Source: Phialocephala subalpina
Lineage: Eukaryota; Ascomycota; Leotiomycetes; Helotiales; Mollisiaceae
Length of the DNA stretch: 64,000 bases
Reading direction: 5' to 3'
Assembly: GCA_900073065.1 (NCBI GenBank)
Contig: FJOG01000032.1
Location: 316,567 to 380,566 of the forward strand
Numbering within the stretch: position 1 is the stretch's first letter; each line of letters starts with the position of its first letter. The position numbers were made by a program, and so were the translations under genes. Shown here piece after piece: positions 42,562-64,000 of the stretch. The notes below the pieces were generated by a model. The model saw nothing but the letters and a program-made list of their open reading frames with translations, had not been told where the DNA came from and did no database searches.

Positions 42562-44785
42562 ATGTTTTCTCTCCAAAACATCTGTCGCAGCCTCGGGCTA
42601 GTATCTCTTGTCCTATCTTCTCTTACAAACGCAGCTACTCTGACAGTATCTACAACTGGTGGGAATGCTTCTAGTCCGTTGCTTTATGGGTTGATGTTTG
42701 AGGTATGCTCTACCTCCACCTTCCCAAATCCATACGCTTCCCATTCCAAGTGAACATTACTGACAAATTTTAGGATATCAACAACTCAGGCGACGGTGGA
42801 ATTCACGGTCAACTCCTAAAAAACAACGGATTTCAAGGCACCTCGCCAACTACCAGTCCCTACGCCGCCGTCGGCTCCGCAACCATCTCACGAGATACCT
42901 CCAACCCCCTCTCTTCCGCCATAACCTCATCCCTCAAAGTGTCCGTTGCAAGCGGGACAACCGGATACGTAGGTTTCTCCAACGCAGGCTACAACGGTGT
43001 CCCAGTCAACCTCGACACCTACGCCAACTATTTCTGGGTCAAAGGCGCCTACTCCGGCATCGTGACCTTGGAACTTGTTGGAGCGAGTAGCGGGATTGTT
43101 TATGCGAGTCAGAATTTGACGATTACGAGTACGGCGAGCAGTTTTAGCTATATTGATACGACGTTTGCGAGTACGCAGAGTCCGGATGGGAATAATGTTT
43201 GGCAGTTGACTTTTGATGCGAGTCAGGTTGCGGGTGGGAGTTTGTGGTTTGCGTTGCCGCAGCTTTTTCCGGTTACGTATCATGCGAGATATAATGGGAT
43301 AAGGCTTGATGTGGGAAATTTCCTTGAGGCGATGAACCCGAGTTTCTTGAGGTTTCCGGGCGGGAACAACCTGTGAGTATTTTCGTGGAGATACTTGACA
43401 CTTGCTGATAACGGAGCAGCGAGGGAGCATCTCCAGCAACAAGATGGAAGTGGAACGAGACTATTGGTCCTGTCGAAGACAGACCAGGTCGCCAAGGTGA
43501 CTGGGGATATGCAAACACCGATGCACTTGGTAAGTTTCTCGGCTTCCTACTCTCATAGCTCTTGCTTATTCTCCAGGTCTCATGGAATACCTTCAGTGGT
43601 GCGAGGATATGAATTTGGCGCCTGTTCTCGCCATCTGGTCAGGCTTGTCTCTTGGAGGTGGGATCGCGTCAGGGACTGCCCTGACACCATACGTCAACGA
43701 TGCTTTGAATGAGCTTGAATTCTTGCTCGGGAGTACATCTACGACCCTCGGTGCTCTGCGCTCCTCGTATGGTCATCCTGCTCCTTACAATAGTAAGTAA
43801 ATATCGACCACCTAAAACTACATCCTCAGGATTGGTATCAACATCCCAACTGATATCGACGTGTTGGTCCTGAAAGTCTTCAAAATAATGCCGAACAATC
43901 AGAATTTGCACATTGACTGACCATTTTTCAGTCACCATGCTCGAAATCGGCAACGAAGACAACCTCTCCTCCGGCTGTTCCACCTACGCATCCCGCTTTA
44001 CGGCCTTCTACAACGCCATCCACGCCACCTATCCCTCTATCACAATAATCGCATCCACCACCTCCTCTTCCTGCCTCCCGTCCCCCCTTCCCTCCGGAGT
44101 ATGGACCGACATCCACCACTACGAAGAGCCGCACGCATTCGTCTCCCTCTTCAACGAATTCGACAACTATCCCCGCACAGACGGCTACGGAATCTTCGTC
44201 GGTGAATATGCGAACACAGCTGATGATTCGGGGGCAACGACGTATTGGAGTACGGTCCAGGGAGCGGTGAGTGAGGCTGTGTATATGATCGGGTTGGAGA
44301 GGAATTCGGATTTGGTGAAGATGGCGTCCTATGCCCCGTTGCTAGAACACTACGATGTCGCGGAATGGTCACCCGACCTAGTCGGGCTCGATGCCCGCCC
44401 AGGCTCTTTGACAGGCTCCGTCTCTTACTACGTCCAGAAACTCTTCTCCACCGCTCGCGGCAACACGATTCTACCAGTAACCTCAGACACGGCGTTTAAT
44501 CCGCTGTTCTGGGTAGCGAGTTCCACTACCACGGGGAAATATTATGTCAAGTTGGCGAACTATGGGACGACAGCTCAGAGTGTGACGATCAAGATTCCAA
44601 ATGCAAGTGGAGTGAGTGCCACTGCTGGGTTGCAGACGTTGACGGGTGGGGCAACGAGTAGTAATTATCCGTTGGATGTTACAGTTTTGCCGACCAGCAC
44701 CACGGTCAGTGGGAGTGCGAGCGGCGGGTGGACGTTTAGTGTGCCGGGGTATGGGGTTGCGGTTTTGACGGTTAGTCCGGCGTGA
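42562..44785 (+). CDS. GH51 alpha-L-arabinofuranosidase, secreted
   Basis: Exons 42562-42702, 42774-43372, 43420-43529, 43577-43792 and 43932-44785 give 639 residues; introns are 71, 47, 47 and 139 bp. A signal peptide (MFSLQNICRSLGLVSLVLSS, cleavage near ANA/TNA-A) leads in. A beta-sandwich carbohydrate-binding-like region (about 60-190) precedes the GH51 barrel. LRFPGGNNLEG marks the barrel entry. The general acid/base is Glu364 in LEIGNED and the nucleophile Glu447 in FVGEYAN. A C-terminal beta domain completes it. Enzymes of this family release terminal arabinofuranose from arabinan and arabinoxylan, which suits trimming of rhamnogalacturonan-I side chains. Its length matches fungal AbfA-type enzymes. 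It is the left-most wall-degrading gene in the window. Confidence 0.96.
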
Positions 44786-45237
44786 TTGCTGAGTTTCTTG
44801 TAACAAAAGTTGAGGTTGGGATGGGGAAATGGGTTGGATGGATGTTTGATCGATTTGAAAACGAAAGTGTGCATGAACAGCATCTCGATGTCAAATAAAT
44901 GCTGCGTGCTTCAAGTTCATTCTACTTCTGAAAAGTTGTGAACTTGAACTCAGACTTTCACGTAATAAATGTCGATTCAAAGTAGCCGCGAGGCAAGAAA
45001 GTTAACAGGTGAACTTAATTGAGGATAGACCTTCAGCGACTGAGAGAACAAGAGCTGCAACTGGAACTTGGGAAGGTTTGTCCCAAATCAGGTGATTGTC
45101 TGCCTAATTCGGAATAGTCCTCGCTCAAGACCGGACCCACTTTTTGAGTTCCTCCCTCCAACTTCAGCACAAGAGCAAACTTTCAGAAAACAACGCGTAA
45201 CTTCAATCGAACGATAAGACAACCTTGAGGAAGACTC
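44786..45237. other. Intergenic
   Basis: 3' region of the GH51 gene and promoter of the next gene. I see nothing specific. Confidence 0.5.
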
Positions 45238-46954
45238 ATGTCTAGAGCCGTCTTCTTGATCGCAACGATGCGCGAACTATCCGAAATCATGCGCGTCCTA
45301 CCACAGGAGATTTACGATGAGGTGCGATTTTATATATCTACCGTTCGGTTTCAAGTAGCTGACCGCAAACAGATTGCCTCTCAATTCGAAGCCGTGATCC
45401 CGTACCAAGAGCCACCCAGAGGCGCGCCGAGAAATACCTCCCCATTCGTCTGCTACGATATGGTTACAGCCTGGTATGGTCGGAATTCGAGACCTGACGT
45501 GGAGACATTGAAGGACCTATGCTTAGTGTCAAAGGCTTTTAACCTTGCTGCTACTACTGTTCTGTTTCGAAATACACGTTCATTGTGGACCCCACGCTGT
45601 GCCTATTGGTGGCTTCAGAGTCGGAACAGCTTATCTTTGAGTCTGCCACCGAAGTACGTCAAGAATCTCGATATCCAGCTCCACACGTTCTTCGCCAAGT
45701 CAGCAGCACATGAGCAAACAAACGAAGACCGAGAGATCTCAGCTTCTGTGGGAAAATTCATTGACGATCTTTCCGAAGGCCTGAATTCAGTTGGAGGGCT
45801 TCGATCTCTCTACATCAACACAGGATCCTGGAAATCCCGGTTCATATATGATTCGTATGGAGTAAGAACCGGCGACACACGTGCTGAGGATGTCGACATG
45901 GAGCACCTGACGTCTTTCCTGAATCAACTCTGCAAATCCTTCTCGACACCCTCCTCCTTCTCCCATCTTACTGAATTACGATTGTCATTTCCAAGCTCCT
46001 ATGACTTCGTCGCCCTCGGGAAGATAATTCCTGGTTCTTTCCTACAACAGCTGAAGGCACTGGGTCTCGCAGTAGCAGATGCAACAGGGCCAGGGGGGTC
46101 AAGCTCCTATTTGGCTCAATCAGATCTGGACAGTGATGGAGATGATAGATTCGAGTCATCCAACCTCCAGAAACTGTACCCAAACAAACAATATGCGCAT
46201 GCTATGTTTGACCTCGCATCGCGCTGTCCCAACCTCGAATCTCTGATTCTAGAAAGCACGCACAGACTTGATTGCAACCTTCTATCACTAAGCACTTCGA
46301 AACTTAGGCAAGTGACCTTCTTATAGCAGTATCCCTACTCCTCGTACATTAGCATATGCAATTCCAACCGCTACGGAGACATGCACGCCTACTACCTGAG
46401 GTCTTTGAAACAGCTATATAGACTTATTTCTCATTAGATCCTTCTTCCTTTGCCGTATGATCATCAGTGCATCAAAGTTGGTTGAATTACTTTCTCCATC
46501 AGCACTGTCAAGACTATGGATTCACGATGTCGAATTGACTTCAGGGTCGTGGGATGAGGTCTTCGACCATCTTCAAAAATGCGACAATCTAGAGTACCTC
46601 AACCCATCCAACTGCTCGTATGCGAGAGGTGGGTCATCTATTCACTACAGAGATTGGAACGTTAGGGAATGGGAGGATACTAATAACCTTTGGAGTACAC
46701 ATGAGCGAGATGGCACAACGTTGGTAAAGCTTGTTGAGAGCTTAGTGGAGAAGGCGGGTGGGAGAGCAAAGTATCCTGACATGAATATTGAGCAGGCGAT
46801 GTTACCATCCGAGGTGTACAGCGATGACGAGGACGACAGCGAGGAGGATCCAAACATCGACGACTTTGACGACTATGAGAGTCTTCATGACTACGTCTCC
46901 GGAGACGACGATTTCGATGGCGAGTACGAATACGACGAGAATGATCACTATTAA
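45238..46954 (+). CDS. F-box-like protein with acidic tail, probably two exons
   Basis: The first frame (45238-46326) has an F-box-like start, VLPQEIYDEV, and a DLCLVSKAFNLAAT segment typical of fungal F-box/LRR-like proteins. A second frame (to 46954) resumes with ASKLVELLSPSALSRLWIHDVEL, which continues the same type of repeat, and ends in a very acidic tail (DDEDDSEEDPN...). A GC-AG intron 46308-46467 (donor AG/GCAAGT, acceptor CATCAG) would join them in phase to 518 residues. A GT donor at 46312 does not fit the frame. Alternatively the gene is broken. Such proteins may act as adaptors of SCF ubiquitin ligases; the target is unknown and a link to the pectin genes is not evident. Confidence 0.6.
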
Positions 46955-47638: not shown

Positions 47639-48682
47639 ATGGCGGCGAACGTCACCCAGAATGCGAACGAGACACTGAACATCGCATTCAACGGAGTCCA
47701 GGCACTCTTCATACCAACAAACGGCATCACAGGCTTCAACAGAAACAATAACACCGGCTACGGCAACATCACAATACTCCAAAACCACGATGCTCTCTGC
47801 ACAACAACTCTCTGCGACCTCACTCTCGCCCACTTCAACTACATACCCTCCCTCGGCGGCAACGCATTCTACGCTGGCATCTTCGGCATCTACATACTCC
47901 TGAACCTCTTTTTCGGCATCTGCTACAAGACATGGGGCTACATGGCAGCCATGTTCTTTGGCCTATCAGGCGAAGTAGTAGGCTACATCGGCCGCATCCT
48001 CCTCTACCAAAATCCGTTCGATCCCACCGGCAACAATTTCCTCATCTACCTCGTCTGTCTGACCATCTCGCCTGCTTTCCTCTCGGCGGCTATCTATCTC
48101 TGCCTCGCTCGCATCGTTGTTATTTATGGAGAACATCTTTCGATATTTAAGCCCAGGACATACACGCTTATTTTTTGCGGGTGTGATATCTTCAGTTTGG
48201 TGTTGCAGGCGGCTGGAGGTGGAATTGCTTCTGGAGCTACAACGCCGAGTCAGGATCAGTTGGGCATCAATGTCATGCTAGCTGGTCTCAGTGTTCAAGT
48301 CGTCTCTTTGTTCCTTTTCGCATGCATGTGCGCCGAGTTCGCCAACCGCCTCCGTCGAAACCCAGACTCATGGAATACACAACACGCCCAACTCTACAAC
48401 GGAAGAGTCTTCAAATCCTTCCTGATAGGGTTGTGTGTGGCGACTTTAACTATCTTTATTCGAAGTACATTCAGAGTTGCTGAACTGTCGGGAGGCTTCC
48501 ATGGTCCGTTGGCGAATAACCAAGTGAGCTTTATGGTGTTGGAGGGAGCAATGGTTATTATGGCTACGAGTTGTTTGACGTTATTGCATCCGGGGTTGTG
48601 CTTTCAGGGTTTCTGGCATGCGGCGAATTTTTCGTTCCTGCAGAAGAAGATTTCGGTTGAGTCGGAGGTGGAGATGGCTTGA
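47639..48682 (+). CDS. RTA1-like seven-helix membrane protein
   Basis: An intronless gene of 347 residues. An asparagine-rich extracellular N-terminus with several N-x-T/S sites is followed by about seven hydrophobic helices. Family landmarks include GYIGR (near 120), the PAFLSAAIYLCLARIV helix, FCGCDIFSLVLQAAGGG, and RSTFRVAELSGGF before the last loop. RTA1/Rsb1 proteins sit in the plasma membrane and are linked to lipid translocation and resistance to toxic lipids or azole-like compounds. Length and motif order are normal. The relation to the neighbouring wall-degrading genes is unclear. Confidence 0.95.
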   Translation: MAANVTQNANETLNIAFNGVQALFIPTNGITGFNRNNNTGYGNITILQNHDALCTTTLCDLTLAHFNYIPSLGGNAFYAGIFGIYILLNLFFGICYKTWGYMAAMFFGLSGEVVGYIGRILLYQNPFDPTGNNFLIYLVCLTISPAFLSAAIYLCLARIVVIYGEHLSIFKPRTYTLIFCGCDIFSLVLQAAGGGIASGATTPSQDQLGINVMLAGLSVQVVSLFLFACMCAEFANRLRRNPDSWNTQHAQLYNGRVFKSFLIGLCVATLTIFIRSTFRVAELSGGFHGPLANNQVSFMVLEGAMVIMATSCLTLLHPGLCFQGFWHAANFSFLQKKISVESEVEMA

Positions 48683-49627: not shown

Positions 49628-51864
49628 ATGCATTTCAACCGTCTTATCGCCGGAGCGGCTGCTCTAGCATTTGTTTCTGTCGCAAATGCCTCGATTTACA
49701 AAAGTGGCAGCACCGTCGAGGTTGACGGGACTTACTACTACATTCCAGCTACTCCGGTCTCGAGTTTGGGAGTTGGATATGATCAGTTAAAGACCACCTG
49801 TAGTGCGGGCGACGACTTCATCCCACTCACTGTCATGACTGGTAACTTCAACACGTTCGATGCTGCTGCTTTGGTGTCCGAGGTCTCAAAGTACACTGAT
49901 GCGGATGATGTGTTCAGTACGGGGTTCTTGCAAGGTGAGTCTGATAGAGTCTGATACAAGTTTGAATTGGGAAAGTGAGTCAACTGACTTTGGCAGCAAT
50001 TTACCTTGTCTCATCTACCCCGGCGGAGCTTCATGCTTCTTTGACATCAACACTGGCCGGATACAGCAACAAGTTGTTCATGGTCTCTGCAACGAGCAAT
50101 TCTTCAATCACAGCAACAAGCTGTACCTCCGAGCTACTAACAGGACCGTACTTCCTGCATGCCTACACTGGAGCCGTGTATCAAGCCTATCGGTTATACT
50201 CCGATTTTGAGGGTGCCTTTACAGAGGGAACAATTGCCAACGCCGATGGAAACTTCAGTACCATGTCTGCATCAATTCCTGTACGTATCATCTCCAGAGC
50301 ACGTGCCTTCAAACTAACACAGACAGGGAGTTCAATCACCAACGATCGGAGTGCCGTCGAGATTGTACTACACCAAAACAGATGCACAGCCACTTGCAGG
50401 GGTAACTATGCCACCAGCTCCGTTACAATTGGGAATTCTAAGGATACCAGGTCCGTCTTGGCGTCAAAGATATCTATGATGTTGCAGGAACCAGAAGAGG
50501 CTGCGGAAATCGAGCATATTATGACCTCTACCCAGAGCGTCCAACCACTGCACCAGCTGTTCAAAAACTTATTGATGCTGGTGCAATTATCGTGGGCAAG
50601 ATGAAGACATCACAATTCGCCAATGGTGAGATGGCGACTGCTGATTGGGTGGACTACCATTCTCCTTTCAATGCACGCGGTGATGGGTACAATGATCCAT
50701 CCTCGTCATCATCAGGACCTGGTGCCGGTATTGGGGCTTATGAATGGCTTGATCTTGGTCTCGGATCGGATACTGGTGGTAGTATTCGGAATCCAGCTCA
50801 AGTGAATGGAGCATTTGGAAACAGACCTACTCACGGTCTGGTGACTCTTGACGATGTGGTAAGTCAGATCCTGGATGCAAACTTTTGGTCTTCATCACTA
50901 ATTTGACTTCAATCTAGATGCCTCTATCACCACTCATGGATACTGCAGGCTTCATCACGCGCGATGCATCACTTTGGAAGACAGCAGGTCAGGTGCTGTA
51001 CGGCAGCAATCTCTCGACCTTCACCTCTTTCCCCAAGAAGCTCTACACCTCCGGCTTTCCGGTCAATATTACATCCGAGGCAGACTCTGTATTCTTTGAC
51101 TTCGTGTTCAAGCTCGAGTTATTCCTTGGAACCAACGCTTCAGTCCTTGACTACGATTCCATGTGGGCTGCCTCACCTCAAGCAGTGTCCACCAACGCCA
51201 GTACTCTATCCGACCTCCTCGCCCTCACCTACCCCACCTTAATCGGGAAACAACAATACACACTTTTTGGAGCACCATTCATTGCCGACTACGAAGCAGC
51301 TCACGATGGTCGCCACCCCTTTTTGGATCCGAACCCCCTCGTGCGATGGACGTGGGCACAAACCAACGCCACGACTCTCGAGGAAGGAATTAACAACAAG
51401 ACGATATTCATGGATTGGTGGAACAGCGAAATCATCAAACCAGATGCTGAGACTTGTTCTGAGAGTTTGTTGTTGTATCCTGGGACGTTGGCTACGCCGA
51501 ATCCCAGGAATGTGTATATCGATCCGCCACAGATTCCGGCGGGATGGAGTGTGCAGAATGTTGCAATCATGGCAGGTGTTCCGGATATGGTGCTACCTAG
51601 TGAGTTACTAAACTTCTCAAACCATGTAAGCCGCTCATTTGCTAGATATGCTGACATCGCGACGCAGTTGGCCAAGCTCCCTACAACTCGACCATTTCAC
51701 TTCATGAGGAACAGTTGCCAGTCGCCATAGACATTATCGCAGCTCCGGGATGCGATGCTCTAGTATTCGAACTTGCAGAGCAGCTCCAGAATGCGGGTAT
51801 AATCAACGCACCGAAGGCAGGAAGCACGATGTATCGCCGTGAAGTCTCTGCTCGCTTAGAATAG
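49628..51864 (+). CDS. Secreted amidase-signature enzyme, six exons
   Basis: Exons 49628-49934, 49997-50280, 50327-50401, 50451-50858, 50918-51599 and 51668-51864 give 650 residues; all five introns (46-68 bp) are GT-AG and in phase. It starts with a signal peptide ([20 protein letters not shown]) and an extra N-terminal domain of about 200 residues. The amidase-signature core follows: Lys228 in LGVKDIYD, the Ser-rich SSSSSGPG loop holding the cis-serine, and the nucleophile Ser333 in [12 protein letters not shown]. The last exon supplies [17 protein letters not shown] and the C-terminal end, missed if the penultimate donor is read through. It hydrolyses an amide (or ester) bond outside the cell. 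The substrate is unknown; a role on amidated or phenolic wall components is only speculation. Confidence 0.94.
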
Positions 51865-52093: not shown

Positions 52094-53963
52094 CTACGCC
52101 CACTCCAGGATGACCGAGTCCCACATGAATCCGTGCCAAAGGGTACTTCGCGTACACTGAAAGCTTAACTTATTCAACCCTTCCTTCAAAGTCGCAGCCG
52201 GAACCCCAAACTCAAAATAATGCCACTCTCCCGCCGTCGTCCCGCTCCTATACAGACATGGATCAGTCGGTATGTTCGCGCTCGTCAAGTTCCCAACCAC
52301 GACTCCATTCATCAAGATACTATCGCTGACTCCACTCGAATACCCTGCCAAACTCACACTTAGCACTGCACTTGAGTTGCTTTTCAATTGGGGAATGCTG
52401 AAAGACACGTCCCATGAGCCGAGAGCAGATTGACCGAAACACCAATCGCTTTCTACACTTGAGCCGATTGTGTACGTCAAGTTCGCTGGACACTTTGCCA
52501 CGAGTGCGTGTTGGTGCGGGGCACCGCCATAGAGGAAACCGAGTGATTTCCTGTCCATGATTCCGATTTGCCAGATTTGTTTTCGGCTTTGCGTCTTCCA
52601 TATCAGAGACCTGAGTGCTGTTTGCTTTCCTTTGGTAACAGTGACATCGTTTTGCAGAAACGTGGTGCTTATATCTCCAATGCTGCCGCCATTTGCCCAG
52701 GCTTGCAATGCATAAGCGCCGGAGCGGACATTGGTGAATGTAAACGAGCCATGGCTGTCGGCGTAGGCAGTAAAGTAGTTGTATCTGCCCATATCAAGTG
52801 TTGTCTCGTTTGGATGGTTGTCGCCCAGAAAGACTGCTGCACCGGATGCGGGCCGTCCGTCTGAGAGCTTGAGCGTACCAGAGACAGAGCCCCGAGAGTG
52901 GTAGTTGGTGCTTGATTGGAACCACGAATATGGCCATTTATTTTCTTCATTATCTGACTTTTTGGAGACGTCCTCGAATGAGCCATCGTTCTGAACTCGG
53001 GTTAGCACTTCTAATGTCCCTTCCTGATCTGGAAATTAAGAAAACGCGACTTACCAAATACCACAACCAAGGGCCCCATGTCTTCCCAACCTCAAAGGCG
53101 TCACTGCTGCTTGCCATGAAATGGGTACCATGGAGCATATTGAGCTGCACAACATCACCAGTTGCACTTTCCCTATGCACCAGTAGCTCCTGCTTCAATT
53201 GGTCCCCGTTGTACTCGTCCTTTCCGGGATAGATATACCAACTTCCATACCTAGGACCATAAACTCCATAGTATTTCTGGTCACGGATGAAAGCGGACCA
53301 GTCGTACTTGGTGATGTATGTTCCATCTGCTTGCTGCCAAGTCTCGTCCTGAACCTTTGTTGAGTTGGCGATTTGGGTAAGCGTTGGTAGGGGTCCTTCA
53401 TTTGAGTTAGCTTCTTCATCTTTCTAGACCTAGACTAGATCGATTACCCTCTTTGATGTCCGTCTTCCCATTGAAGAAAGTCGTGTTGTCCAATCTAAAT
53501 AGACTTCTGAACTCTCCAAGAATCGGTAATGCTCGGTTGACGAAGTACTGGTAAGCACCTGCTTGATTTGGGTAGATCACCCAGTGGAAGTCCCCTTCGT
53601 TGGCAGAGAATGAGACGTCGAGATATGTTTCTGTGCGTTCGAAAACCGAGACTGAGGTCCAGTTGAGGTTGGATGCTGCTCCATCTAATCCGAGTAAGCA
53701 TTGTTGTCGCGGACGCACAGAGGATAAGAGGTTGGGGACTTACTGTAGCTGACATAGTGCCCCACAGCGTTTCCGACAATATCCTTGCCCTTGTAGTACA
53801 GTTTGGTGCCGTAGGTCTGCCCGATGGTGATGTTCCAAATGGAATTGCCTATCACATGCTCGGTGTCGTTGATGGTGACGAGAAAGGGAGCATTGTTGAC
53901 AGGTGCAGCAACAATTCTTGAAACAAGACCAGCCAGAATGGCAAAGCTGACAGAGAACTTCAT
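52094..53963 (-). CDS. PL4 rhamnogalacturonan lyase (shorter type)
   Basis: Exons 53744-53963, 53448-53684, 53055-53395 and 52094-52990 give 564 residues; introns are 59, 52 and 64 bp. I chose the ATG at 53963 because a signal peptide follows (MKFSVSFAILAGLVSRIVAA); an in-frame ATG at 53999 would add twelve residues. The catalytic domain keeps the Lys of TKYDW (Lys182) and the His of LHGTH (His241), spaced as the lysine/histidine pair of Aspergillus PL4 lyase. A fibronectin-III-like domain (GSVSGTLKLSDGRPASGA onward) and a carbohydrate-binding-like C-terminal domain follow, the normal PL4 architecture. It cuts the GalA-Rha backbone by beta-elimination, leaving a 4,5-unsaturated GalA at the new end. 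Fungal RGL-A-type size. Confidence 0.95.
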
Positions 53964-54446
53964 CTTGAGCCCTTGGAAGCTTCTAAAAGATTTAAACATG
54001 TATTTCTGTCCTCTTTTAGCCTATACTTCGTTGCCTCGCGTCAGATATAACTTATAGACACCCTTGTAGACTTCCTCCAGGTTAAGCCAGGATGATATAC
54101 AGGGGCACAGCCTCTCTCCACGTGGGGTAACGCAGCTTAGCTCGCCAAGACATGAGGGGAAGGGGAAGGGAAAGGTAGGTCAATTTGCTTCGGTTCAAAT
54201 GTCACCGAAGGCTGAAAAGTAGGATAGCATACGGAAAAACTTCCGGATCAACGCAAGAAGGAGGCCGATGACCCAAGGATATGGTTAGCGTTTCTTGGGA
54301 CTAAAGTCTGGGGTCAAAATAGAAACCCTGAGACATCTCGGGGAAGGTGATAACGAGGCGGCTCATGATAGCGCGATGTATTTTGTTCTAGGCAGATAGA
54401 GCTATTCCCGCTTTCGGTTCCTATCACTAGCAAGTTCAACATGACT
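53964..54446. promoter_or_regulatory. PL4 promoter region and MFS pseudogene 3' side
   Basis: 483 bp. It contains CCCTGA at 54326-54331 and a CTCGCCAAGA near 54141 that resembles, imperfectly, the CCGCCAA core of the other lyase promoters. Confidence 0.4.
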
Positions 54447-56235
54447 TCATAATGTATATCTAAACTTTTCAGATCCTTCTATAATTCTCTTCCCTTCATC
54501 GGCTTCGTTGTTGCGCCTGTGCAAGATTAACATGGTTAATAGGGCCAGGAAAATTGTGATGACTGAAGGAGCAAGGAGAGCAATTACACCTGGAACATAG
54601 CGTGGGGCATTCTATATTGTCAGATACATGTATTACATCGAGCGGGGTAGAAACTCACCTGCTGTCTAAAGACTACATTGGGATATCACCCGCTCCACTC
54701 ATCATAACAATGATTGCGGTAGCAACTGATCTCTTCGCATCGCCTCTGATATTATTTGCTTGCCATGCCAGCGACGTCACAATAAATCCCTAAACTCCAG
54801 CTTCTCCGATGAAGACGCCTATTAAGTAATTAGTCACTTACTTAATCGAGAAGGATCAGTTGCCTTACCAACTAATCTTGGAATTGGATCTGCCAGACAC
54901 CCCATCATACAAAATCCCACGAGGGCAAGAACGCCCAATACAACGACAAATGGTCCACGAATGTGCCATTTATCAGCAAGCCAGGCAGCAAACCCTCCAA
55001 CCAAGACAGCAAACATAACTGGCGGTGCCACCAGAATGAAAGAGAGTTCTTGGCTGAAGCCGAGACTGTCTTGGAGAATGATGGGAAGGAACAGGGTGAA
55101 ACTGCATCCTCCGATCGCGCCTGTCATGTACATGAATGAACTGGTCGGCACCAGCCAACGAAAGGGCATCAAAATCGGATCGTATAATATCACTCACTAA
55201 GACCAGATCTGCCAATCTAAGCTCGTCGCCCAGATCACAGCCCATGTGACAGGTCAATTATTCTCAGCCCCAAGATCATCTTCAAGACGCTGTAATACGA
55301 AGGTTTTCTGCTTTTTGCCCAGAAACTTAGTGCGATGCGAGGCCGGAAAATCAACAATCAGGAACCCAGATACAAGCCCGACCAGAATAGTGATAGCTCC
55401 CTCAACAATGTAGATCCGTCTCCAACCTTTGTATTCAGGGTTAACACGGGAGATTTTTATTAGTCCGTATGCGAGAATACTGCCGAAACTGGCTAGGAAT
55501 TGAGCTGTGAAGTAGAAGAATGCAAATCGTTTCTGGATCTCGTATCGTCTGTATCAACATGTAATCAAATATACCATACCTAGATAAATACCCTGTTTTC
55601 TGTTCAATATATGGTAAAGACTAGATAGACGAGGGAGACTCACAGCTTTGCAAGCACCGATAAAATGTCTCAGGACGGATAGACTGATCCAGTCATGGAC
55701 GAAGCCTTGACCAAGGGTAAAAGCGCCAAAAGCTATCGTGATTGCAGAAATCCAGTTCGCGACACCGATTTTCTTGATGATGATATTGCTTGGAATTTCG
55801 AAGACTATGTAGCCGATGAAGAATACCAGTACTTTCAAATGTCAACTTTGAGGCCTGATGGCCTGTTGGAACGGCCTACATGCTATAGAAGCTCGACTCC
55901 CGATATCAAGACCGACATCTTCGTCGAGCCCAGATATCCTGGCAACGGAGATATTGGTTCGGTCAACGTAAGCCAAAGTGTATATAAGACCAAGAAGTGG
56001 TAGTACTCGAAAATCATTCTTTCGTCTATCCTACCGTCAGCTAAGGGTTGACCTAACAGGACTAGAATTTGAGGATGTACATAATTCGTTTAGCAAATTT
56101 CGAATCCTCTGCTTCTTCCCCGGGGACAGAGTCTTGAGTACCAGCTTGATCCGGACCTGCGTCGGCGGGCTTTTCTCCAAGTTCCATGGTGGAGGACTCG
56201 TCGGACCTGGCTCCAGGTCCCGCTTCGGAAGCCAT
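54447..56235 (-). pseudogene. Decayed MFS anion:cation symporter (Dal5/allantoate-permease type)
   Basis: The start at 56235 (MASEAGPGARSDESS) leads through a GTACAT-TAG intron (56026-56080) into RKNDFRVLPLLGLIYTLAYVDRTNIS-type TM1. TM segments and YEIQKRFAFFYFTAQ, WQIWSYSFMYMTGAIGG and RGDAKRSVATAIIVMMSGAG follow in family order, ending NAPRYVPGVIAL and a short tail. Lesions seen: an in-frame TGA at 55254-55256, an in-frame TAG at 54790-54792, a single-base frameshift near 54685, and an irregular junction near 55560-55640 where the FPG-YLI-WY stretch should be. I therefore call it a pseudogene. It lies next to an intact relative (56852-58649), which suggests a redundant transporter being lost. 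Confidence 0.82.
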
Positions 56236-56851
56236 TCTGATTGCTGTGGTTCTTCTTTCGTTCTCGTAGATGGCGCTAGGAAGATAGAAGAAGGTAAAAA
56301 GGCAATAACAATTGGAAGAAAACAGAGCGTCGAGGACGGAGAATCGCGAGGGGCTAACATCCATGTATGATCCAACTCACTCTTTGGTGACAGACCGCAT
56401 TATCGAGATGAGGTGTTTTCTGGATATTAACTTACAGCTAGATTGGCCGACCTACGGATCTGGTGGATGTCCGTTTGAGTTCCGACACCTGTATCAAGAG
56501 ATGTCATTGATGCCCCCAATCTTAAGTTAGCAGATCGTGACACTGCCGAGAACACTGAACTGTAATGAACCTAGTTCGGCATTTAATGGTGGCGGATCAT
56601 GACGAGGGGGCTGAGTAGTGGCAGCGCTAGATTCAGCAGTCAAAGGGGACTTTAAACAATTATCCTAACATGGGTTACTAGCATTAACATCAAAGAGAAT
56701 AAGGATGATGATGTGAGAAAGCGGAGTACCAAGGGGACGTATTCATGAATAACCACAACACTAACGATTTAGAGAAAGACTTCCATTCCATTACGACAAA
56801 GTTCAGAGACGCTTGCTGCGCAGAGAAATTTTCGACCTATCTAATAACAAG
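56236..56851. other. Intergenic between the two MFS genes
   Basis: 616 bp of unremarkable sequence holding the former promoter of the MFS pseudogene and the 3' region of the intact MFS gene. No gene seen. Confidence 0.5.
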
Positions 56852-58649
56852 CTAGAAGACATATCTGAAGTTCGGGTTCTCCTTGTCCGTCAAATCCTCG
56901 AACGCATGCACGTACTGCTGATCCTGAGCCTCTTGAATCCCAGCTAAAGCCAGCTCATCCTTCTTCTTATTTTGACGAAGTAGATACCAACGGAGGAAGA
57001 GGATGACGAAAACCAAGATGCTGTAGCAGACGAGATGAACTGTGAACGCGATGAGATATCGAGGGGCATTCCATTTGAGGAACACTTGAGGTCCTGTAGC
57101 TTCACGTCAGAGAGAGTCCCATCGATGAAAAGGTGAGAGCTTACCAATTGCGTTCCCAACAGCCCAAGCGACGAAGTTGGTAGCGACGACTGTGGCCTTC
57201 TTGGTCTGGCCTGCAATGTTTCTCGAGATCATGGACAGAGCTAATGTCTGGGCAGACCAGAATGAGAGAGTCAAGTAATAGCTGATGAGCAAGCCAACCT
57301 GGTTCGCCTTATCTGTGTTTCTGACAGTCATAAGGACGATGGTCCCAATAAAAGATCTACCCGAGTCAGTCAAGTTGTCATGGAATGATAGAGGGAGAAC
57401 TCACGGAATGACGAATCCAAGCATGACAAACAGGTTCTGTCCAAACTTCTTGACTAACCAAGTGGAAGTGAGAAGCACAATAATGATATAGAAGCCGAGA
57501 ACCATTGCCAACAACTGTGTCTGGAGCACGGTGAAGTGGAACCCAGTGATGATGATGTTTGCGAATGCCCCGAGACCACTAGTTGGAAGAGTTGTGGTGA
57601 TCGCAATGCCGCAATAACACCAAGTCTGAGGATCTTTGAAAGCCTCAATCATTTGCTCTCTCTTGAAAGTCTTGTTTTGGACACCAGTTTGGTTGACTCT
57701 GACACGTTCGACCATGAGGCGTTTATCCTCTTCGCTGAAGCACTTTGCTCTCATTGGAGAGTCAGGCATCCAAAAGAAGACGAAGACTCCCCATAGGATT
57801 GCTACTCCTCCATAGGCGATGAAGAGAGCTTGCCATGACTTGAGCGGTCCGTGTTTCAAGAGTGTGAAACAGTAAGCCAGGAGACCTCCAACAACTTGCT
57901 GAGCACCGTTCATCATATCTGGTCAATGTCAATGTCTGAAGTCTTACAAGTCAAGGTGAATCCTTACACCAAAAAGAGACTGTGGCTGCCTGCTCATCTC
58001 TCAAATACCACATACTCGACAAGATAACGAATGATGGCTGGCAGCATGCCTCAAAGATACCTAACAGGGTTCTCACAGCAACAAGACTAGCAAAGTTCTT
58101 GCAAGCAGCATGGCACATCAAAGTAGCTCCCCAGAGCATAATGTTGATCGACAGGTATTTGGCAATGGGAACTCGTTGAATGATCCAGTTGGTGGGGTAT
58201 TCCACGATGAGCACAGCGATGTAGATACACGTTGTCAACCAAGAAAACTTGGAACGTTGTTAGCTCTCTGCCTCTGCACAGACAGCCTTTCAAAAGAATC
58301 TTACCTGTTGTCCGACAAGCCCAGTATCCTCCTGTATACCCATAATCGAAGCAAAAGACATTGTCCCCTTGTCTAAAGCTTGCAAGAAGTAAGTGAAGAT
58401 CATAATAGCCAGGACTCGGCGATCAATGAGCTTTTTTAGGCGTTTGCTGGTCGCTTCATCGATGTGGACGCGAACATCGCTGGTGTATTTTGCGACTTCA
58501 GAGTCAACGGCATTGAAGTCTGTTAGGTCTTTGCCAGCATACTCCATACGCTCGACGTGGACACTTTCAACATCGTCGCCTTTTCGAGAAGTGTGCTTTT
58601 GATCGTCATGGAGCTCAGGAGGAGTTGCTGGGTCGATTTCGTTTGCCAT
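56852..58649 (-). CDS. MFS transporter, Dal5/allantoate-permease family
   Basis: Exons 58305-58649, 57968-58247, 57405-57918, 57145-57356 and 56852-57093 give 530 residues; the four introns (57, 49, 48 and 51 bp) are GT-AG and in phase. A charged N-terminal tail of about 80 residues precedes twelve predicted helices. ALDKGTMSFASIMGI and FSWLTTCIYIAVLIVEYPTNW mark the first helices. RTLLGIFEACCQPSF marks the middle, and FLKWNAPRYLIAF and the C-terminal tail the end, in the order usual for the anion:cation symporter family. Members carry vitamins, allantoate, amides or acidic sugar derivatives. It starts 755 bp from, and diverges from, the GH105 gene, so import of unsaturated rhamnogalacturonan fragments is an attractive guess, not shown by sequence. 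Confidence 0.94.
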
Positions 58650-59404
58650 CTTGAAAAGGGAGACTACCAAGGAGACCAAAGTTGCTACTGTCAAAGTAGG
58701 AGACGGAGATGAACAGCAATATAGAGGAGGAGCTGGGAGACTTTAGCTCAACCCAACATCAAATCCTCTCTCTCGGCTACACGCATCGTAGACCGAAGCA
58801 TACGACTCAGATCACAAGCATTTCCAAGGCAAAGTAAGCTTCCATTACTCAACCGTGGCAAGGTTGGGACGATACATCCCAATCCAGTCCATCTGCAGCG
58901 CCAAGCCATGTATTTGTTGGTGGAAGAATCACGGAAGTCAAGACCTTTCGACTTAGTATGCTCCGAACCGCACCCCCAAATGCAGGACGAAAGATGGGGA
59001 GGCTGAGGAGCATTCCAATTTTCATCAACAATACAAGGGATTGATTGGTGAAAACATAATGATCGGCAATCTTGTGGCGCCTTTTGTCGATTTCCAGCGA
59101 GTCATGCTCGGCTAAGTCCCCTTTTTTGGCGGGGTATTCCGGAGCCCCGCGTGGGACTCGATACGAGACTTCGGGGTAGACTCGACCGAAGAGCAAAATT
59201 TCTCACAAGGCCAAGACAGCTTCGTCAGCCTCGTCCTTCATTGTTTCGAGAAGACGAGATTCTTTGGACGAAGCATTCGAAGCTCTTCCCGTCTAGCTCG
59301 AATTCTGGAGCTTCGTCCTTCTGTCCGAGAGCAGCAACAGCAACAGCAACAGCGACAGTCCGACAACACCAGCAGAAAGAATAGCATCCTCCAGACCCGC
59401 AAAG
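58650..59404. promoter_or_regulatory. Divergent MFS/GH105 promoter
   Basis: 755 bp between outward-facing starts, containing the composite module at 59124-59150. A CAG/CAA-type microsatellite (about 59332-59362) lies in the presumed GH105 leader. Confidence 0.65.
59124..59150 (-). promoter_or_regulatory. Composite promoter module, copy 1
   Basis: On the minus strand it reads GCGGGGCTCC (59150-59141), six bases, CCCCGCCAAAA (59134-59124). The same two blocks with seven bases between occur at 63306-63333. GCGGGG and CCCCGC also form an inverted pair, as a zinc-cluster regulator might bind. CCNCCAA-type cores have been described for galacturonate-responsive fungal promoters. Confidence 0.6.
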
Positions 59405-60526
59405 ATGCCCAACACCGTTGACGGAGTCGAATCTGCCGCCGTGCACGATGCCATCAAGCTCCTCACCAACAACCTCGTCAACATCAAAGACACAACTGGC
59501 AAATTCCTCATGACCATACCCGACGGTCGCATAATCGACACGAAAGGCTGGAACGAGAACAACTGGGAATGGACACACGGCGTTGGTCTCTATGGACTGT
59601 ACAAATACTATTCTCTGACAGGAGATAAAGCAACACTCAAGATTGTGGAAGATTGGTTTCGGGAACGGTTCGCAGCTGGCGGAACGACGAAGAACATCAA
59701 CACTATGGCTCCATTTTTGACGCTGGCATATTTGTATGAGGAGACGGGGAATAAGACGTATCTACCGTGGCTGGATTCATGGGTGGAGTGGGCGATGTAT
59801 GATTTGGAAAGGACGGAATATGGTGGGATGCAGCATATCACCTACTTGACACCGAACACGCAACAACTGTGGGATGACACGTTGATGATGACGGTTCTGC
59901 CCCTTGCGAAGATTGGGCAGGTGCTTGGAAGACCGCATTACGTGGAGGAAGCGAAAAGGCAGTTCCTGTTGCATATCAAGTATCTTTTCGACCCGCAGAC
60001 TGGGCTTTGGTTCCACGGATGGACATTTGAGGATGGAGGACACAACTTTGCGAGAGCGAGGTGGGCGAGAGGGAATTCTTGGATAACGATTGTGATCCCT
60101 GAGTTCATCGAACTTCTGGATCTGCCAGAATCAGACCCGATCAGAAGGCATCTTGTCGATACCTTGGAAGCACAATGTCGGGCGCTGAAGAAATACCAAC
60201 ACGAGTCGGGATTGTGGAGAACATTGCTGGATCATAATGATGAAGGATCGTATGTGGAAGCTTCCGCGACTGCTGGATTTGCGTACGGAATTCTAAAAGC
60301 GCAGCGAAAACGCTTTATTGGAAAGGAGTACGAGGAAGTCGCGTTGAAGGCCATCAAGGCTGTGATAGGACAGATTGATTCGAAAGGAGAGCTGCAGAAC
60401 ACCAGCTTTGGAACTGGAATGGGAGATTCTTTACAATTTTATAAAGATATCCCGTTAACGAGTATGCCGTATGGGCAATCGATGGCAATCATGGCGTTGG
60501 GAGAGTTTTTGCGAAGGTTTATTTGA
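59405..60526 (+). CDS. GH105 unsaturated rhamnogalacturonyl hydrolase
   Basis: Intronless, 373 residues, of normal length for the YteR/YesR-type (alpha/alpha)6-barrel family. It opens MPNTVDGVESAAVHDAIKLL with no signal peptide, so it should be cytosolic. Landmarks are WEWTHGVGLYGLYKY (54-68), TMAPFLTLAYLYEETG (100-115) and WDDTLMM (156-162). The last holds the acidic residue expected to protonate the C4-C5 double bond (Asp157 or Asp158), followed by GHNFARARWARGNSW. The enzyme removes the unsaturated galacturonyl residue that PL4 lyases leave at the non-reducing end of rhamnogalacturonan oligosaccharides, giving rhamnose-ended products. It diverges from an MFS transporter and lies between two PL4 genes, so product import followed by hydrolysis inside the cell is likely. 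Confidence 0.96.
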   Translation: MPNTVDGVESAAVHDAIKLLTNNLVNIKDTTGKFLMTIPDGRIIDTKGWNENNWEWTHGVGLYGLYKYYSLTGDKATLKIVEDWFRERFAAGGTTKNINTMAPFLTLAYLYEETGNKTYLPWLDSWVEWAMYDLERTEYGGMQHITYLTPNTQQLWDDTLMMTVLPLAKIGQVLGRPHYVEEAKRQFLLHIKYLFDPQTGLWFHGWTFEDGGHNFARARWARGNSWITIVIPEFIELLDLPESDPIRRHLVDTLEAQCRALKKYQHESGLWRTLLDHNDEGSYVEASATAGFAYGILKAQRKRFIGKEYEEVALKAIKAVIGQIDSKGELQNTSFGTGMGDSLQFYKDIPLTSMPYGQSMAIMALGEFLRRFI

Positions 60527-60814
60527 CATAGAAATGAACAAATGAAATGTTGCATTCTAGTGTGTCGAAAGCCTAAAACTTCAGTACCGGGTGCCTTGAA
60601 TCGCAAGCGAGACTTCGCTCATAGCGTACGCTGGAATTGGTGGGGTGAAGCCTGAAGAATTAGTGACCAGTACCCTAAAACCCACCCTAACTCACTAAAA
60701 CCTAGTGACCAGAACCTGTCAATTTGGAAACATAATCTCTCGATCCCAGCAACTGTCGGATACAAAACGAGAGGGCAGAGATTCCATGATTTTCTATATG
60801 ACTACCTCTCTCTT

Positions 60815-63083
60815 CTATACAATCTCCAATCTCAAAGCATCATACTGCACGTAAGTGCTCTGCGGCAACACCGCGCTCTCATAATCCGTCGCATTAGCTG
60901 GCAGGTGTAGCACAATCTCATTCGTCCCTTCAACCAATAACTTCGGATCAAAAGTGAACTTATTCGCGATATTATAGCAAATCACAGCCGATCTCACAGC
61001 GCAAGAGCTGCTGTGATAGTATCTGTTCACCTTGTCAGTACAACAACCCCTCATTCATGGAAAAAAAAAACCTTACGGAATAACCCAAGGTTCCAACTCC
61101 TTCCCATTAACAACCACTGTATACGGCAAGTTCGCAAACGGCTCACTGGCGTTATACACATCCGTGTTTCCCGCCGCCGTCTTCGCACCGGCAAGCTGGA
61201 CGGTGAACGTCGCCTGCCTCTTATTCGTAAACTGGCTCTTCTCCATATCCCACAAAATCGTCCAATTATTCACGTTCTCATAGTACGGCTGAGTCCGTAT
61301 CGAGTTTGCGTATCCGCCAAACACGCTCCAGTGGACGTAGTTGAGGTCTTGCGCAATGTCATCTTTCCCAACATGGAACGTGACACCGTTGGGGAACTCG
61401 GTAGGGAAATCGTACACAGCCCAGTAAATGCGGTATTGCTCTGGATGCAGAGGCTTGGTTTCGTCTGGTGCGTAGCCGTGTTTGTACTCTCCTGAGGATT
61501 TATCGGGTGTACCGATTCTCCAGATCTCCGTTCCGGCGTTCTCTTCTCTCCATCTAGCGTGAGTGGTGTGGACTTCGCCGGCGATTATTTCGACGTCATC
61601 TTTGGTGTATTGGCCGAAGATGCCGTCTGCGTAAACGGTCAAACGATATGTCCCTGCTTTGACTGCAGGGATCTCGACATCGCCTGTCGCGGGGTCAATG
61701 TCGGCCCAGTACTGATAGGCTTTGGTGTCGAGGACGTTATCTTGGAAATCGACGCCATTCTGGGCGAGGACGGCGATAGGCTTTACTGCATTTGCGGGGA
61801 GATCGACATGGCCTTTCCAGGTAGTGCGACCAGAGGAGGGAACGTAATTTGGTACGTGCTGTGCAATAGAGTCATAGAATGCTTGGTTCCAGGTGGGAGA
61901 GGCGAACGGGAGAGCTTCTTGGCGGAGTGTTTCCATGGGTGTGCCAGGAACACCTTTGTTGAAGAAATAGAATTGCTGACGATTGTCAGTGAGGTGGCCT
62001 ATAGTATTAATTTGTACTTACCGGTCCAAAGGTTCGGTCGAAGCCATCAGTGATGTTCGGTGTGCCGTCGCCGTGATGATTGGAGACTGGCTCTTGTTAG
62101 CAGGGTACCGGGGTCGGCTCGTGACGACTGACCAATATAATTGTAGACAATTCCATCAACGATAAGATCGGAATGCAGAGGTCCTCCGAAATACGTATCC
62201 TTGGTGTTCATCACAAGCCATGATCCGAAAGTCGAATTGTCATTGCTGGTTGTTCCATCTGAGTACAAGCCATGTACATCATGGTCTCTCCAAGTATCCT
62301 GGAACGTGTACTTGGTGAAGTAGTCCGCTTCTTGCTGCACGTATGGATCATCGGGAGTGTTCCCAAGATACCAAGTTGCATCCTGGACCGTGACTTCGTG
62401 GCTTGTCGCATTCTTCGAAGGCAATGGAGCATACTGTTCCTCGTTGGTGAGAAGATGAGTCCAAAGCGGGGTATTTGGTCTGAACAAAGTTCTGAACTCT
62501 TGTAAATTCCTTAAGAAGGGAGTTGTCTTATTATGGTATGCCAATCGACTGAAGGTATGCAGACCCGTTTCGCCTTCTCTCAGAAACCAGTACTGTTCAA
62601 GTGTCTGGCCGGTTGGTGGGTAGGTCTCGCTCATCACAATTCCTCCATATGGGGTGTTCGTCGAGTCCACCCCCTTTATGAGTTGATATTTTGGCGCAAT
62701 TGAACCTGGCGTGTAGCTGCCGGAAGGAATGCAGTAGCAATCTAGGTATGGTCCGATTCCACTGTTTCCCGATCCGGTCGCTCCCCCAGGTGTCGGAGTG
62801 ACATAATTCAGTGTTCCTAAGAGATCTTGCCCATCCAGGAAGAGGTAGTTGATCGCACCAGTTGACTTGTTGACTGCGGCTGAGAACCGATCGTTGGCTA
62901 GGATCTAAAAGTTTGTCAGATTTTTGAGCTTGACAGCTCGAAGGTTGTGGGATTCTTTCTCACCAATGAAGCAGCTGTCTCAGTCGCATTGAGAATAGCA
63001 GTAGCTTTTGCAATCCACAGCACGAATAACGCAGATACTGACAGAAGGCCTCGTCCCCGAATTATTGAGTTTGGCGAAACCAT
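60815..63083 (-). CDS. PL4 rhamnogalacturonan lyase (longer type)
   Basis: Exons 62964-63083, 62133-62904, 62022-62086, 61077-61975 and 60815-61022 give 687 residues; introns are 59, 46, 46 and 54 bp, GT-AG. The final intron needs the acceptor at 61023 (GAACAG); the earlier AG would give a stop. The N-terminus (MVSPNSIIRGRGLLSVSALF...) is a signal peptide. The catalytic Lys of TKYTF (Lys238) and His of NHHGD (His302) correspond to the Lys/His pair of the family. An FnIII-like domain (near VDLPANAVKPIAV) and a C-terminal jelly-roll domain complete it. This fits the RGL-B-like group, and its similarity to the PL4 at 52094 is only moderate, so it is not a recent duplicate. It shares a divergent promoter with the CE12 gene. 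Confidence 0.95.
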
Positions 63084-63832
63084 ACTTTCAAATTTCCCAG
63101 CGCTGCTGCCCACGATCCAAAACTTAGAAGGAAAGTTCGTACCTGCGCCTGGAACTTTCCTGCCACACCATGACCACCTGCAGCATACATATGTCACCCT
63201 CGGCGTATTGATTATCCACCCTAGTTCATCCAAACATTGGCATTCCAAGGTACATTACAGTGCAGCCTTACCCCTGACCTCGGCGGAGGATGTTCGACCG
63301 AAAATGCGGGGCTCCACCACGACCCCGCCAAAACGCACTTCGGGATCTCTTCAGACGAACCGCCTCAATTTTAGGCATACATTAGACCTTTCCTTTGCTG
63401 AAAGCGAGGGTAGTCCTTCCGGCTGCTTGTTTCCGAAGCGAATTCGTGATATGCATTGTGGGGAAGAAGTGAGGTAGGTGGAAATATTTGAACCGACTTC
63501 GAGCCAAGAATATCCACCCCGCGATTTGCTCGAACAGCTTGCATCGGCCTAGCGGCGTAGGTTGGAAGTATGGGGTAGGAATTAGATTGGCAAACAATCT
63601 CGTGGTCGCTCGTCATTGAGACAACCGATCTGGCATCGATGTTGGGATATGGAGGAGCCGCTCGTCCGCCGTCGTTCGAGTATGCAGCAGTCTATGTTGA
63701 TCATGCACGCGAGGAACTTGACAAAAGCGCAAATTTGGTTAAATAGGTCGATGCAGTAGTGTTGACAAAACTGAATACAATTGAAAAGCTTGATTGTCCT
63801 GTACTTCTCTGTTTGTCACCATCTTCTCAATC
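63084..63832. promoter_or_regulatory. Divergent PL4/CE12 promoter
   Basis: 749 bp between outward-facing starts. It holds CCCTGA at 63272-63277, a block at 63270-63300 resembling one upstream of the RTA1-like gene, and the composite module at 63306-63333. Confidence 0.65.
63306..63333 (+). promoter_or_regulatory. Composite promoter module, copy 2
   Basis: GCGGGGCTCC (63306-63315), seven bases, CCCCGCCAAAA (63323-63333). Both blocks match copy 1 (59124-59150) exactly in the same relative order. Confidence 0.6.
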
Positions 63833-64000
63833 ATGAAGTCCGTCGTAGCTCTTAGTGTCATTGCACTTGCAAGCATCAACAGCCTCGCAATCGCTGCAAG
63901 TATTCCCCAAACCCGATATGCATCTCGTAGCTGGCCACCCAAGAAGCCAGCAGCATTCTTCCTCGCCGGCGACTCAACGACAGCAGCCCAGTCGAACTCG
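63833..64000 (+). CDS. CE12 rhamnogalacturonan acetylesterase, 5' part only
   Basis: The window ends 56 codons into this gene. An ATG at 63833 starts a signal peptide (MKSVVALSVIALASINSLAI, cleavage near AIAAS). After a short linker comes AAFFLAGDSTTAAQS, the block I of the SGNH/GDSL esterase fold with the catalytic serine in GDS (Ser48 by my count), in the form seen in fungal rhamnogalacturonan acetylesterases. The enzyme would strip acetyl groups from the galacturonic acid of rhamnogalacturonan I, which opens the backbone to the PL4 lyases. Another SGNH esterase family cannot be excluded from so short a piece, but the neighbours support CE12. Confidence 0.85.
   Translation, partial: MKSVVALSVIALASINSLAIAASIPQTRYASRSWPPKKPAAFFLAGDSTTAAQSNS

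What the first reader, a model, noticed from the sequence alone, without database searches (positions are those of the whole stretch)
42562..64000. A fungal rhamnogalacturonan-I utilisation cluster
Within about 21 kb there are a GH51 arabinofuranosidase, two different PL4 rhamnogalacturonan lyases, a cytosolic-looking GH105, MFS carriers and a CE12-type esterase. These cover deacetylation, debranching, backbone cleavage, uptake and intracellular hydrolysis of one polymer. Fungal pectinase genes are usually scattered, so such a near-complete set side by side resembles a bacterial polysaccharide utilisation locus. Reading of the families is direct; the pathway is inference from what these families are known to do.
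Basis: partly seen in the sequence, partly recalled or inferred. Interest (0 to 1): 0.85.

Follow-up and report, generated by a model that had tools for sequence, protein, structure and literature searches.

The report
Fungal pectin uptake-and-digestion gene cluster
A root-dwelling fungus keeps genes for cutting, importing and finishing off one branch of plant pectin next to each other, apparently under the switch that senses the sugar rhamnose, in a layout that resembles a known bacterial system.

Summary
The genes are real, but the cluster is tighter than claimed. The window lies in the root endophyte Phialocephala subalpina. Core, 52,094-64,795: PL4, a probably decayed MFS, an intact DAL5-type MFS, a GH105 without signal peptide, a second PL4, and a CE12-type esterase ending 795 bases past the window. 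The GH51 is real but lies beyond three other genes and its promoter lacks the shared site; I leave it out. Four of the nine RG-I backbone genes found in this genome sit in these 12.7 kb. Most conserved is the GH105-MFS pair: linked, by locus tags or contig length, in 9 of 13 other genomes comparable here, and duplicated elsewhere in this genome. PL4 linkage is a minority (2 of 7 genomes with GH105). The published rhamnose-regulator site (TCGG-N11-CCGA, one mismatch allowed) lies within 300 bp upstream of 10 of 13 RG-I/rhamnose genes against 2 of 35 control genes. In Neurospora a neighbouring GH105-permease pair is published as co-regulated by that factor. Best reading: a fungal functional counterpart of bacterial RhiE-RhiT-RhiN, in which an anion permease imports the unsaturated disaccharide and cytosolic GH105 splits it. 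The transported substrate is inferred.

The parts
52094..53963 (-). PL4a: secreted-looking PL4-type rhamnogalacturonan lyase, divergent subtype, 564 aa, 4 exons
   Evidence: Model; PF14683 (132.9 bits) and PF14686; relative P0321 aligns with PL4b relative P0248 through the N-terminal part
54190..54208 (.). Exact TCGG-N11-CCGA site in the PL4a promoter
   Evidence: one of 658 exact sites in the genome
54450..56235 (-). MFS1: probably decayed MFS gene with an in-frame stop
   Evidence: Pfam MFS_1 only below cut-off on the model piece
56852..58649 (-). MFS2: DAL5/allantoate-permease-type MFS, 530 aa
   Evidence: MFS_1; P0121 of P. subalpina maps on its exons; nearest solved structure a D-galactonate transporter (E 2e-9)
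59171..59189 (.). Exact TCGG-N11-CCGA site in the MFS2/GH105 divergent promoter
59405..60526 (+). GH105 unsaturated rhamnogalacturonyl hydrolase, 373 aa, one exon, no signal peptide
   Evidence: PF07470 333.9 bits; PDB 4xuv, 3qwt, 3pmm
60815..63083 (-). PL4b: secreted-looking PL4 rhamnogalacturonan lyase, 687 aa, 5 exons
   Evidence: Model; PF14686 and PF14683
63283..63301 (.). One-mismatch regulator-type site (core CGG-N11-CCG kept) in the PL4b/CE12 divergent promoter, the best of four one-mismatch sites there
63833..64000 (+). CE12-type esterase, first part; gene continues to 64,795 (270 aa, 4 exons)
   Evidence: profile match to 1DEO; a relative is named CE12 by its source (P0345)
42562..44785 (+). 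GH51 arabinofuranosidase: neighbour, not counted as a member
   Evidence: no regulator-type site in 1,000 bp upstream

Best explanation
A fungal RG-I catabolic gene cluster that works like bacterial RhiE-RhiT-RhiN. A secreted CE12-type esterase removes acetyl groups; two secreted PL4 lyases cut the Rha-GalA backbone by beta-elimination and leave an unsaturated uronate end; MFS2, of a carrier family that takes organic anions, imports the short acidic product, most likely the unsaturated GalA-Rha disaccharide; cytosolic GH105 splits it into L-rhamnose and 4-deoxy-5-keto-uronate. L-rhamnose feeds the non-phosphorylative pathway and, through a RhaR/PDR-1-type activator on TCGG-N11-CCGA sites, turns on the cluster and other RG-I genes. 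Shown here: gene content, clustering, recurrence and duplication of the GH105-MFS pair, site enrichment. Inferred: enzyme activities, the substrate of MFS2, control by RhaR in this species.
For: Families. Four of 9 backbone genes in 12.7 kb. GH105-MFS linked in 9 of 13 other genomes and duplicated on C51 with 69% identical MFS, while the third GH105 (C14), which has a signal-peptide-like start, has no MFS among the gene models around it. Regulator-type site: two exact in 2,606 bp of cluster intergenic DNA (expected 0.025); with one mismatch 10 of 13 target promoters against 2 of 35, and spacer 11 alone stands out. Neurospora mfs-20 (NCU02653) and gh105-1 (NCU02654, called intracellular) are both in the PDR-1 core regulon with 3 sites each (PMC5469009, sections and passages read). 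RhiE/RhiT/RhiN parallel (PMC3870299, passages read).
Against: No expression or enzyme data for this species. PL4b is unlinked to GH105 in 5 of 7 named genomes and to the MFS in 12 of 16; GH105 and MFS are unlinked in 4 of 13. The exact site is absent from the rhamnose catabolic genes, the natural positive control; only one-mismatch sites are there, and that tolerance was chosen after seeing this. Two neighbours outside the pathway (RTA1, rhodopsin-like) also have one-mismatch sites. In Neurospora the PL4 gene asd-1 is regulated oppositely to gh105-1. MFS1 looks broken.
Confidence: 0.7

Rival explanations
1. Two co-regulated pairs (MFS2-GH105 and PL4b-CE12) plus PL4a merely came to lie together in this lineage. 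MFS2 imports a sugar acid monomer such as galacturonate or galactonate, and GH105 finishes products that enter by another carrier.
For: The pairs recur separately: MFS-GH105 in 9 of 13 genomes; PL4b-CE12 linked in 2 of 3 named genomes (Cudoniella, Acephala yes; Xylogone no); full linkage is a minority. Nearest solved relative of MFS2 is a D-galactonate transporter; some hits are named 2-ketogluconate transporter by their sources.
Against: GH105 without a signal peptide needs an imported unsaturated oligomer, and the same MFS type follows both such copies; bacteria pair the enzyme with a carrier too.
Confidence: 0.2
2. GH105 and MFS2 serve another unsaturated uronide, for example from homogalacturonan or glucuronan lyases, and the RG-I lyases are incidental neighbours.
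For: GH105 and the related GH88 act on several unsaturated uronides (recalled); names in hit lists include unsaturated glucuronyl hydrolase.
Against: Regulator-type sites shared with L-rhamnose genes and PDR-1/rhamnose control of the Neurospora pair.
Confidence: 0.08
3. Chance neighbourhood in a genome rich in carbohydrate-active enzymes.
For: The genome has an expanded set of such enzymes (PMC5148876, abstract and passages read); the GH51 neighbour is plausibly of this kind.
Against: Expected count about 1.3e-8 for the four backbone genes, recurrence, shared sites.
Confidence: 0.02

Closest known systems
RhiE-RhiT-RhiN of Erwinia (Dickeya) chrysanthemi under the rhamnose activator RhaS (PMC3870299, passages read; primary paper not read)
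   Same: Secreted rhamnogalacturonate lyase, carrier for unsaturated rhamnogalacturonides, cytoplasmic hydrolase, control by a rhamnose-responsive activator
   Different: Fungal carrier is DAL5-type MFS while the 8 bacterial neighbour ORFs scanned are PF13347; activator is of another type; fungal genes have their own promoters. Homology was shown here for GH105 only, against close proteobacterial relatives, not against RhiN itself.
Neurospora crassa mfs-20 / gh105-1 in the PDR-1 core regulon (PMC5469009, sections 13-14 and passages read)
   Same: Neighbouring gene numbers, allantoate permease plus GH105 called intracellular, rhamnose regulator, same DNA motif
   Different: The passages I read do not discuss the pair as a unit or assign mfs-20 a substrate; PL4 asd-1 and ce12-1 carry unrelated names and asd-1 is oppositely regulated
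Aspergillus niger rhaB-rhtA tandem (PMC5161314, abstract and passages read)
   Same: Pectin hydrolase beside a carrier, both controlled by RhaR
   Different: Secreted GH78 and a rhamnose monomer carrier
Bacterial polysaccharide utilisation locus (recalled)
   Same: Depolymerise outside, import, finish inside, genes linked
   Different: No operon; no SusC/SusD-type gene among the models here

Membership tests
Fungal RG-I catabolic gene cluster | Several RG-I backbone enzymes plus a carrier side by side, beyond chance | tested here: met
Fungal RG-I catabolic gene cluster | Linkage kept in other species | tested here: inconclusive
   GH105-MFS 9 of 13; GH105-PL4b 2 of 7; MFS-PL4b 4 of 16; PL4b-CE12 2 of 3, by locus tag or contig length
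Fungal RG-I catabolic gene cluster | Shared regulatory element | tested here: met
   10 of 13 against 2 of 35 promoters; spacer control; exact site missing from the rhamnose genes
Fungal RG-I catabolic gene cluster | Co-expression on RG-I or rhamnose | not testable with these tools
   Only published data on the Neurospora pair
GH105 | Family profile over the whole domain | tested here: met
   PF07470 positions 2-351 of 352, 333.9 bits; 4xuv 566.7 bits
PL4 | Domains II and III | tested here: met
   PF14686 and PF14683 in both
PL4 | Catalytic domain and activity | tested here: inconclusive
   Neither N-terminal part hit a Pfam model; PL4b relatives carry PF28395 and the PL4a relative P0321 does not in the precomputed column; shared invariant Lys in the alignment, catalytic role recalled; activity not testable
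CE12 | Relation to a solved rhamnogalacturonan acetylesterase | tested here: met
   Family profile against 1deo, E 3.6e-6; the single sequence did not reach it
RhiE-RhiT-RhiN (membership, as distinct from working alike) | Carrier homologous to the bacterial GH105-linked carrier | tested here: not met
   MFS2 finds no match in 0 of 80 bacterial GH105 loci, i.e. none; 8 neighbour ORFs scanned are PF13347, MFS2 is PF07690
Bacteroidetes-type PUL | SusC/SusD pair in an operon | tested here: not met
   None among the gene models and domains of 42.5-66.3 kb

The most novel reading that the evidence does not exclude
Filamentous ascomycetes run a eukaryotic counterpart of the bacterial Rhi pathway: a DAL5-family anion permease imports the unsaturated rhamnogalacturonyl disaccharide, and a cytosolic GH105 that shares its origin with proteobacterial enzymes (transfer between bacteria and fungi, direction and date unresolved) cleaves it, producing inside the cell the rhamnose that switches the cluster on. 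It would be a fungal import route for an acidic pectic disaccharide.
Probability: 0.45. Interest if true: 0.75.

Novelty: new variant of a known kind. Interest (0 to 1): 0.6.

Why it matters
Fungal pectin breakdown is usually pictured as digestion outside followed by monosaccharide uptake (general knowledge). A recurring permease-GH105 pair suggests that part of RG-I is taken up as an unsaturated acidic disaccharide and finished inside, which would also make the rhamnose inducer within the cell. It names a carrier gene to test and exposes a gap: no KduI-family match, the bacterial next step for the other product, was found in this genome.

Tried and rejected
GH51 as a member: rejected for distance, three intervening genes and no regulator-type site in 1,000 bp upstream. 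Galacturonate-responsive element TCCNCCAAT (recalled): one full match between 41 and 70 kb, at 51,414 inside the amidase gene; dropped. Transfer of a whole bacterial cluster: MFS2, PL4a and PL4b match none of the 80 bacterial loci; 13 of 80 hold a weak CE12-type match within about 6 kb. Direction of GH105 transfer: in a tree of 69 rows (199 collected, 105 left after thinning at 90%, database fungi then halved) all 29 bacteria lie on one side of a branch (99/98), but the one outgroup is too distant to root it. First candidate for the rhamnose genes (C46:2,075-2,083 kb) held other genes by eye; the right locus is C46:1,957-1,960 kb, whose dehydratase matches L-rhamnonate dehydratase 3fxg at 825 bits. 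Ten paper searches were run; those for a described fungal RG-I cluster or GH105-permease pair listed nothing that I recognised as such from titles and abstract openings, PMC5469009 apart; the lists were capped and subscription journals are mostly not covered. No structure prediction or fold search was run.
Full report
Source. The window is G000:C76:316,567-380,566 of a 68.1-Mb, 119-contig genome. MFS2 returns a Phialocephala subalpina protein (P0121) that maps on the window's exons, and the contig holding its paralogue P0158 has the same length, 3,933,241, as C51. P. subalpina is a Helotiales (Leotiomycetes) fungus, a root endophyte with a published 69.7-Mb genome and 20,173 predicted genes (PMC5148876, passages read).

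Anatomy. Models come from my own exon predictor, checked against database proteins for MFS2 and CE12. From left: GH51 42,562-44,785 +; an unassigned gene 45,238-46,954 +; RTA1-like 47,639-48,682 +; amidase 49,628-51,864 +; PL4a 52,094-53,963 -; probably decayed MFS1 about 54,450-56,235 -; MFS2 56,852-58,649 -; GH105 59,405-60,526 +; PL4b 60,815-63,083 -; CE12-type 63,833-64,795 +. Beyond it (numbering continued) are a rhodopsin-like membrane protein 65,100-66,261 -, a Glyco_hydro_cc protein 68,114-69,180 + and, 14 kb from CE12, a borderline Zn2Cys6 match at 78.8-80.1 kb (21.2 bits, cut-off 21). MFS2-GH105 and PL4b-CE12 are divergent pairs with intergenic stretches of 755 and 749 bp.

Families. 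Pfam gives GH51, PL4 domains II and III in both lyases, MFS_1, Glyco_hydro_88 and Fung_rhodopsin. The esterase stays below the Pfam cut-off in my first, mis-spliced model; the database copy carries PF13472 and PF00657, and its family profile reaches rhamnogalacturonan acetylesterase 1DEO and YxiM, while the single sequence reaches only YxiM. GH105 matches 4xuv, 3qwt and 3pmm with 537-567 bits; that the first is fungal and the other two enterobacterial is recalled. A PL4a relative is 24-26% identical to 15 PL4b-type proteins, with an invariant Lys in a TKY motif; its catalytic role is recalled, not tested. Neither lyase hits a solved structure by sequence (55 and 61 used PL4b relatives; 61 listed one irrelevant weak match).

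How unusual in this genome. Found: 4 PL4-type genes (5 matches), 3 GH105 genes (4 matches) and 2 genes with the CE12-type query (5 matches; other CE12 subfamilies may be missed). Four of these 9 lie in 12.7 kb; a random-order model expects about 1.3e-8 such sets and none appeared in 2 million draws. PF06964 has 6 matches, 5 over the cut-off, one being the window's GH51. GH28 gives 60 exon matches, the nearest on this contig at C76:594,712; PF17389 gives 15, none on C76.

Paralogous pair. C51 holds a GH105 without signal peptide divergent from an MFS 69% identical to MFS2. C14 holds a GH105 with a signal-peptide-like start (by eye) and no MFS among the five other models printed for its 30 kb, a list that may miss genes. 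C67 has a second RG-I-looking locus: PL4, GH28, an aminotransferase (by eye) and two MFS-like genes within 13 kb (GH28 confirmed).

Other fungi. Fungal DNA is not held here, so I compared locus tags and contig lengths by eye in hit tables that list the best 120 each. Named genomes in both the GH105 and MFS tables: 13, P. subalpina left out. PL4b and GH105: linked in 2 of 7 (Coniosporium, W97_06832 beside 06833; Phlyctema same contig), unlinked in Rhynchosporium, Cirrosporium, Cadophora DSE1049, Annulohypoxylon bovei and Diplogelasinospora; three unnamed metagenome contigs (8,493; 8,844; 10,759 bases) appear to hold both. PL4b and MFS: 4 of 16 (Coniosporium, Phlyctema, Xylogone, Coleophoma). 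PL4b and CE12: consecutive in Cudoniella (g7867, g7868), same contig in Acephala macrosclerotiorum, unlinked in Xylogone; CE12 is also unlinked to GH105 in Talaromyces atroroseus and P. herquei, and to the PL4a-type gene in Halenospora. So the pair is widespread (Leotiomycetes, Dothideomycetes, Sordariomycetes, Xylobotryomycetes; others not looked up), and the full set is a lineage-limited assembly.

Regulation. The PDR-1/RhaR element TCGG-N11-CCGA is published (PMC5469009, sections 13 and 14 and passages read). Exact sites: 658 in the genome, against 774 for the reversed control pattern, so there is no genome-wide excess; two fall in 2,606 bp of the cluster's intergenic DNA (expected 0.025, P about 3e-4). 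The positive control failed at first: the rhamnose catabolic locus has no exact site in 7 kb. With one mismatch its genes do have sites. At that tolerance, within 300 bp upstream: 11 sites in 10 of 13 promoters (PL4a, MFS2, GH105, PL4b, CE12; C51 GH105; C67 PL4 and GH28; C54 PL4; C34 CE12 with an approximate start; C14 GH105; rhamnonate dehydratase; a neighbouring short-chain dehydrogenase taken as rhamnose dehydrogenase). MFS2, C67 PL4 and C14 GH105 have none; MFS2 has one at 317 and an exact one at 540 bp. Controls: 2 of 35 other genes of the same loci. Spacer 11 stands alone: spacers 2-10 and 12-24 give 0-4. The genome rate (20,596 sites) predicts 1.1 in those windows. Leaving out the two promoters added after a site had been seen: 8 of 11, P 2.5e-5. 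Of 8 window neighbours checked separately, RTA1 and the rhodopsin-like gene have a one-mismatch site; adding all 8 to the controls, though some are already among the 35, gives 4 of 43 and P 6e-6.

Published support. In Neurospora, NCU02653 (allantoate permease mfs-20) and NCU02654 (gh105-1, called intracellular) are both in the PDR-1 core regulon and in the expression cluster of most rhamnose genes, with 3 sites each. That they are neighbours is my inference from the consecutive numbers. Against: the PL4 gene asd-1 is regulated in the opposite way there. In A. niger, urhgA (GH105), rglB (PL4) and two CE12 genes are among the RG-I genes down in rhamnose-pathway deletion mutants (PMC5674754, passages read).

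Bacterial connection. Within 1.5 kb of GH105, 64 of 80 have a polytopic ORF by a simple hydrophobicity count that is uncalibrated (it finds only 4 segments in MFS2 itself). The 8 such ORFs that I sent to Pfam, from 7 loci, are PF13347. So bacteria pair this enzyme with a PF13347 carrier and fungi with a DAL5-type carrier. PMC3870299 (passages read) describes RhiE, RhiT and RhiN and their control by RhaS.

Mechanism and limits. Deacetylation, backbone lysis, import, cytosolic cleavage and rhamnose-driven induction fit the anatomy. The permease's substrate is the weakest step: carriers of this family take organic anions (recalled; nearest solved structure a D-galactonate transporter), and the unsaturated disaccharide is one. 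No KduI match was found, so the second product needs another route.

Noticed in passing
window 4001-26000: AT-rich block (GC mostly 21-31%, with a GC-richer island at 22-24 kb), repeat-induced-mutation-like by eye.
   Followed up: no
window 54450-56235: MFS1 beside the intact carrier looks decayed: an in-frame stop and no continuous frame.
   Followed up: partly
G000 C67:94385-106796 (L019, L020): Second RG-I-looking locus with PL4, GH28, an aminotransferase-like gene and two MFS-like genes, with an exact regulator-type site at 97,448 before the GH28.
   Followed up: partly
G000 C51:561601-565189 (L026): Divergent MFS-GH105 pair, a paralogue of the window's pair.
   Followed up: yes
window 47639-48682 and, in continued numbering, 65100-66261: RTA1-like and rhodopsin-like membrane protein genes flanking the core each carry a one-mismatch regulator-type site within 300 bp.
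   Followed up: no
L034-L113: Proteobacterial GH105 proteins are 62-69% identical to the fungal one, suggesting transfer between bacteria and fungi.
   Followed up: partly
whole genome G000: No KduI-family (PF04962) match, so the fate of 4-deoxy-5-keto-uronate is unclear.
   Followed up: partly
window 30601-39698: Two adjacent long, proline-rich predicted proteins (1,550 and 1,370 aa, two exons each, minus strand) of unknown family.
   Followed up: no
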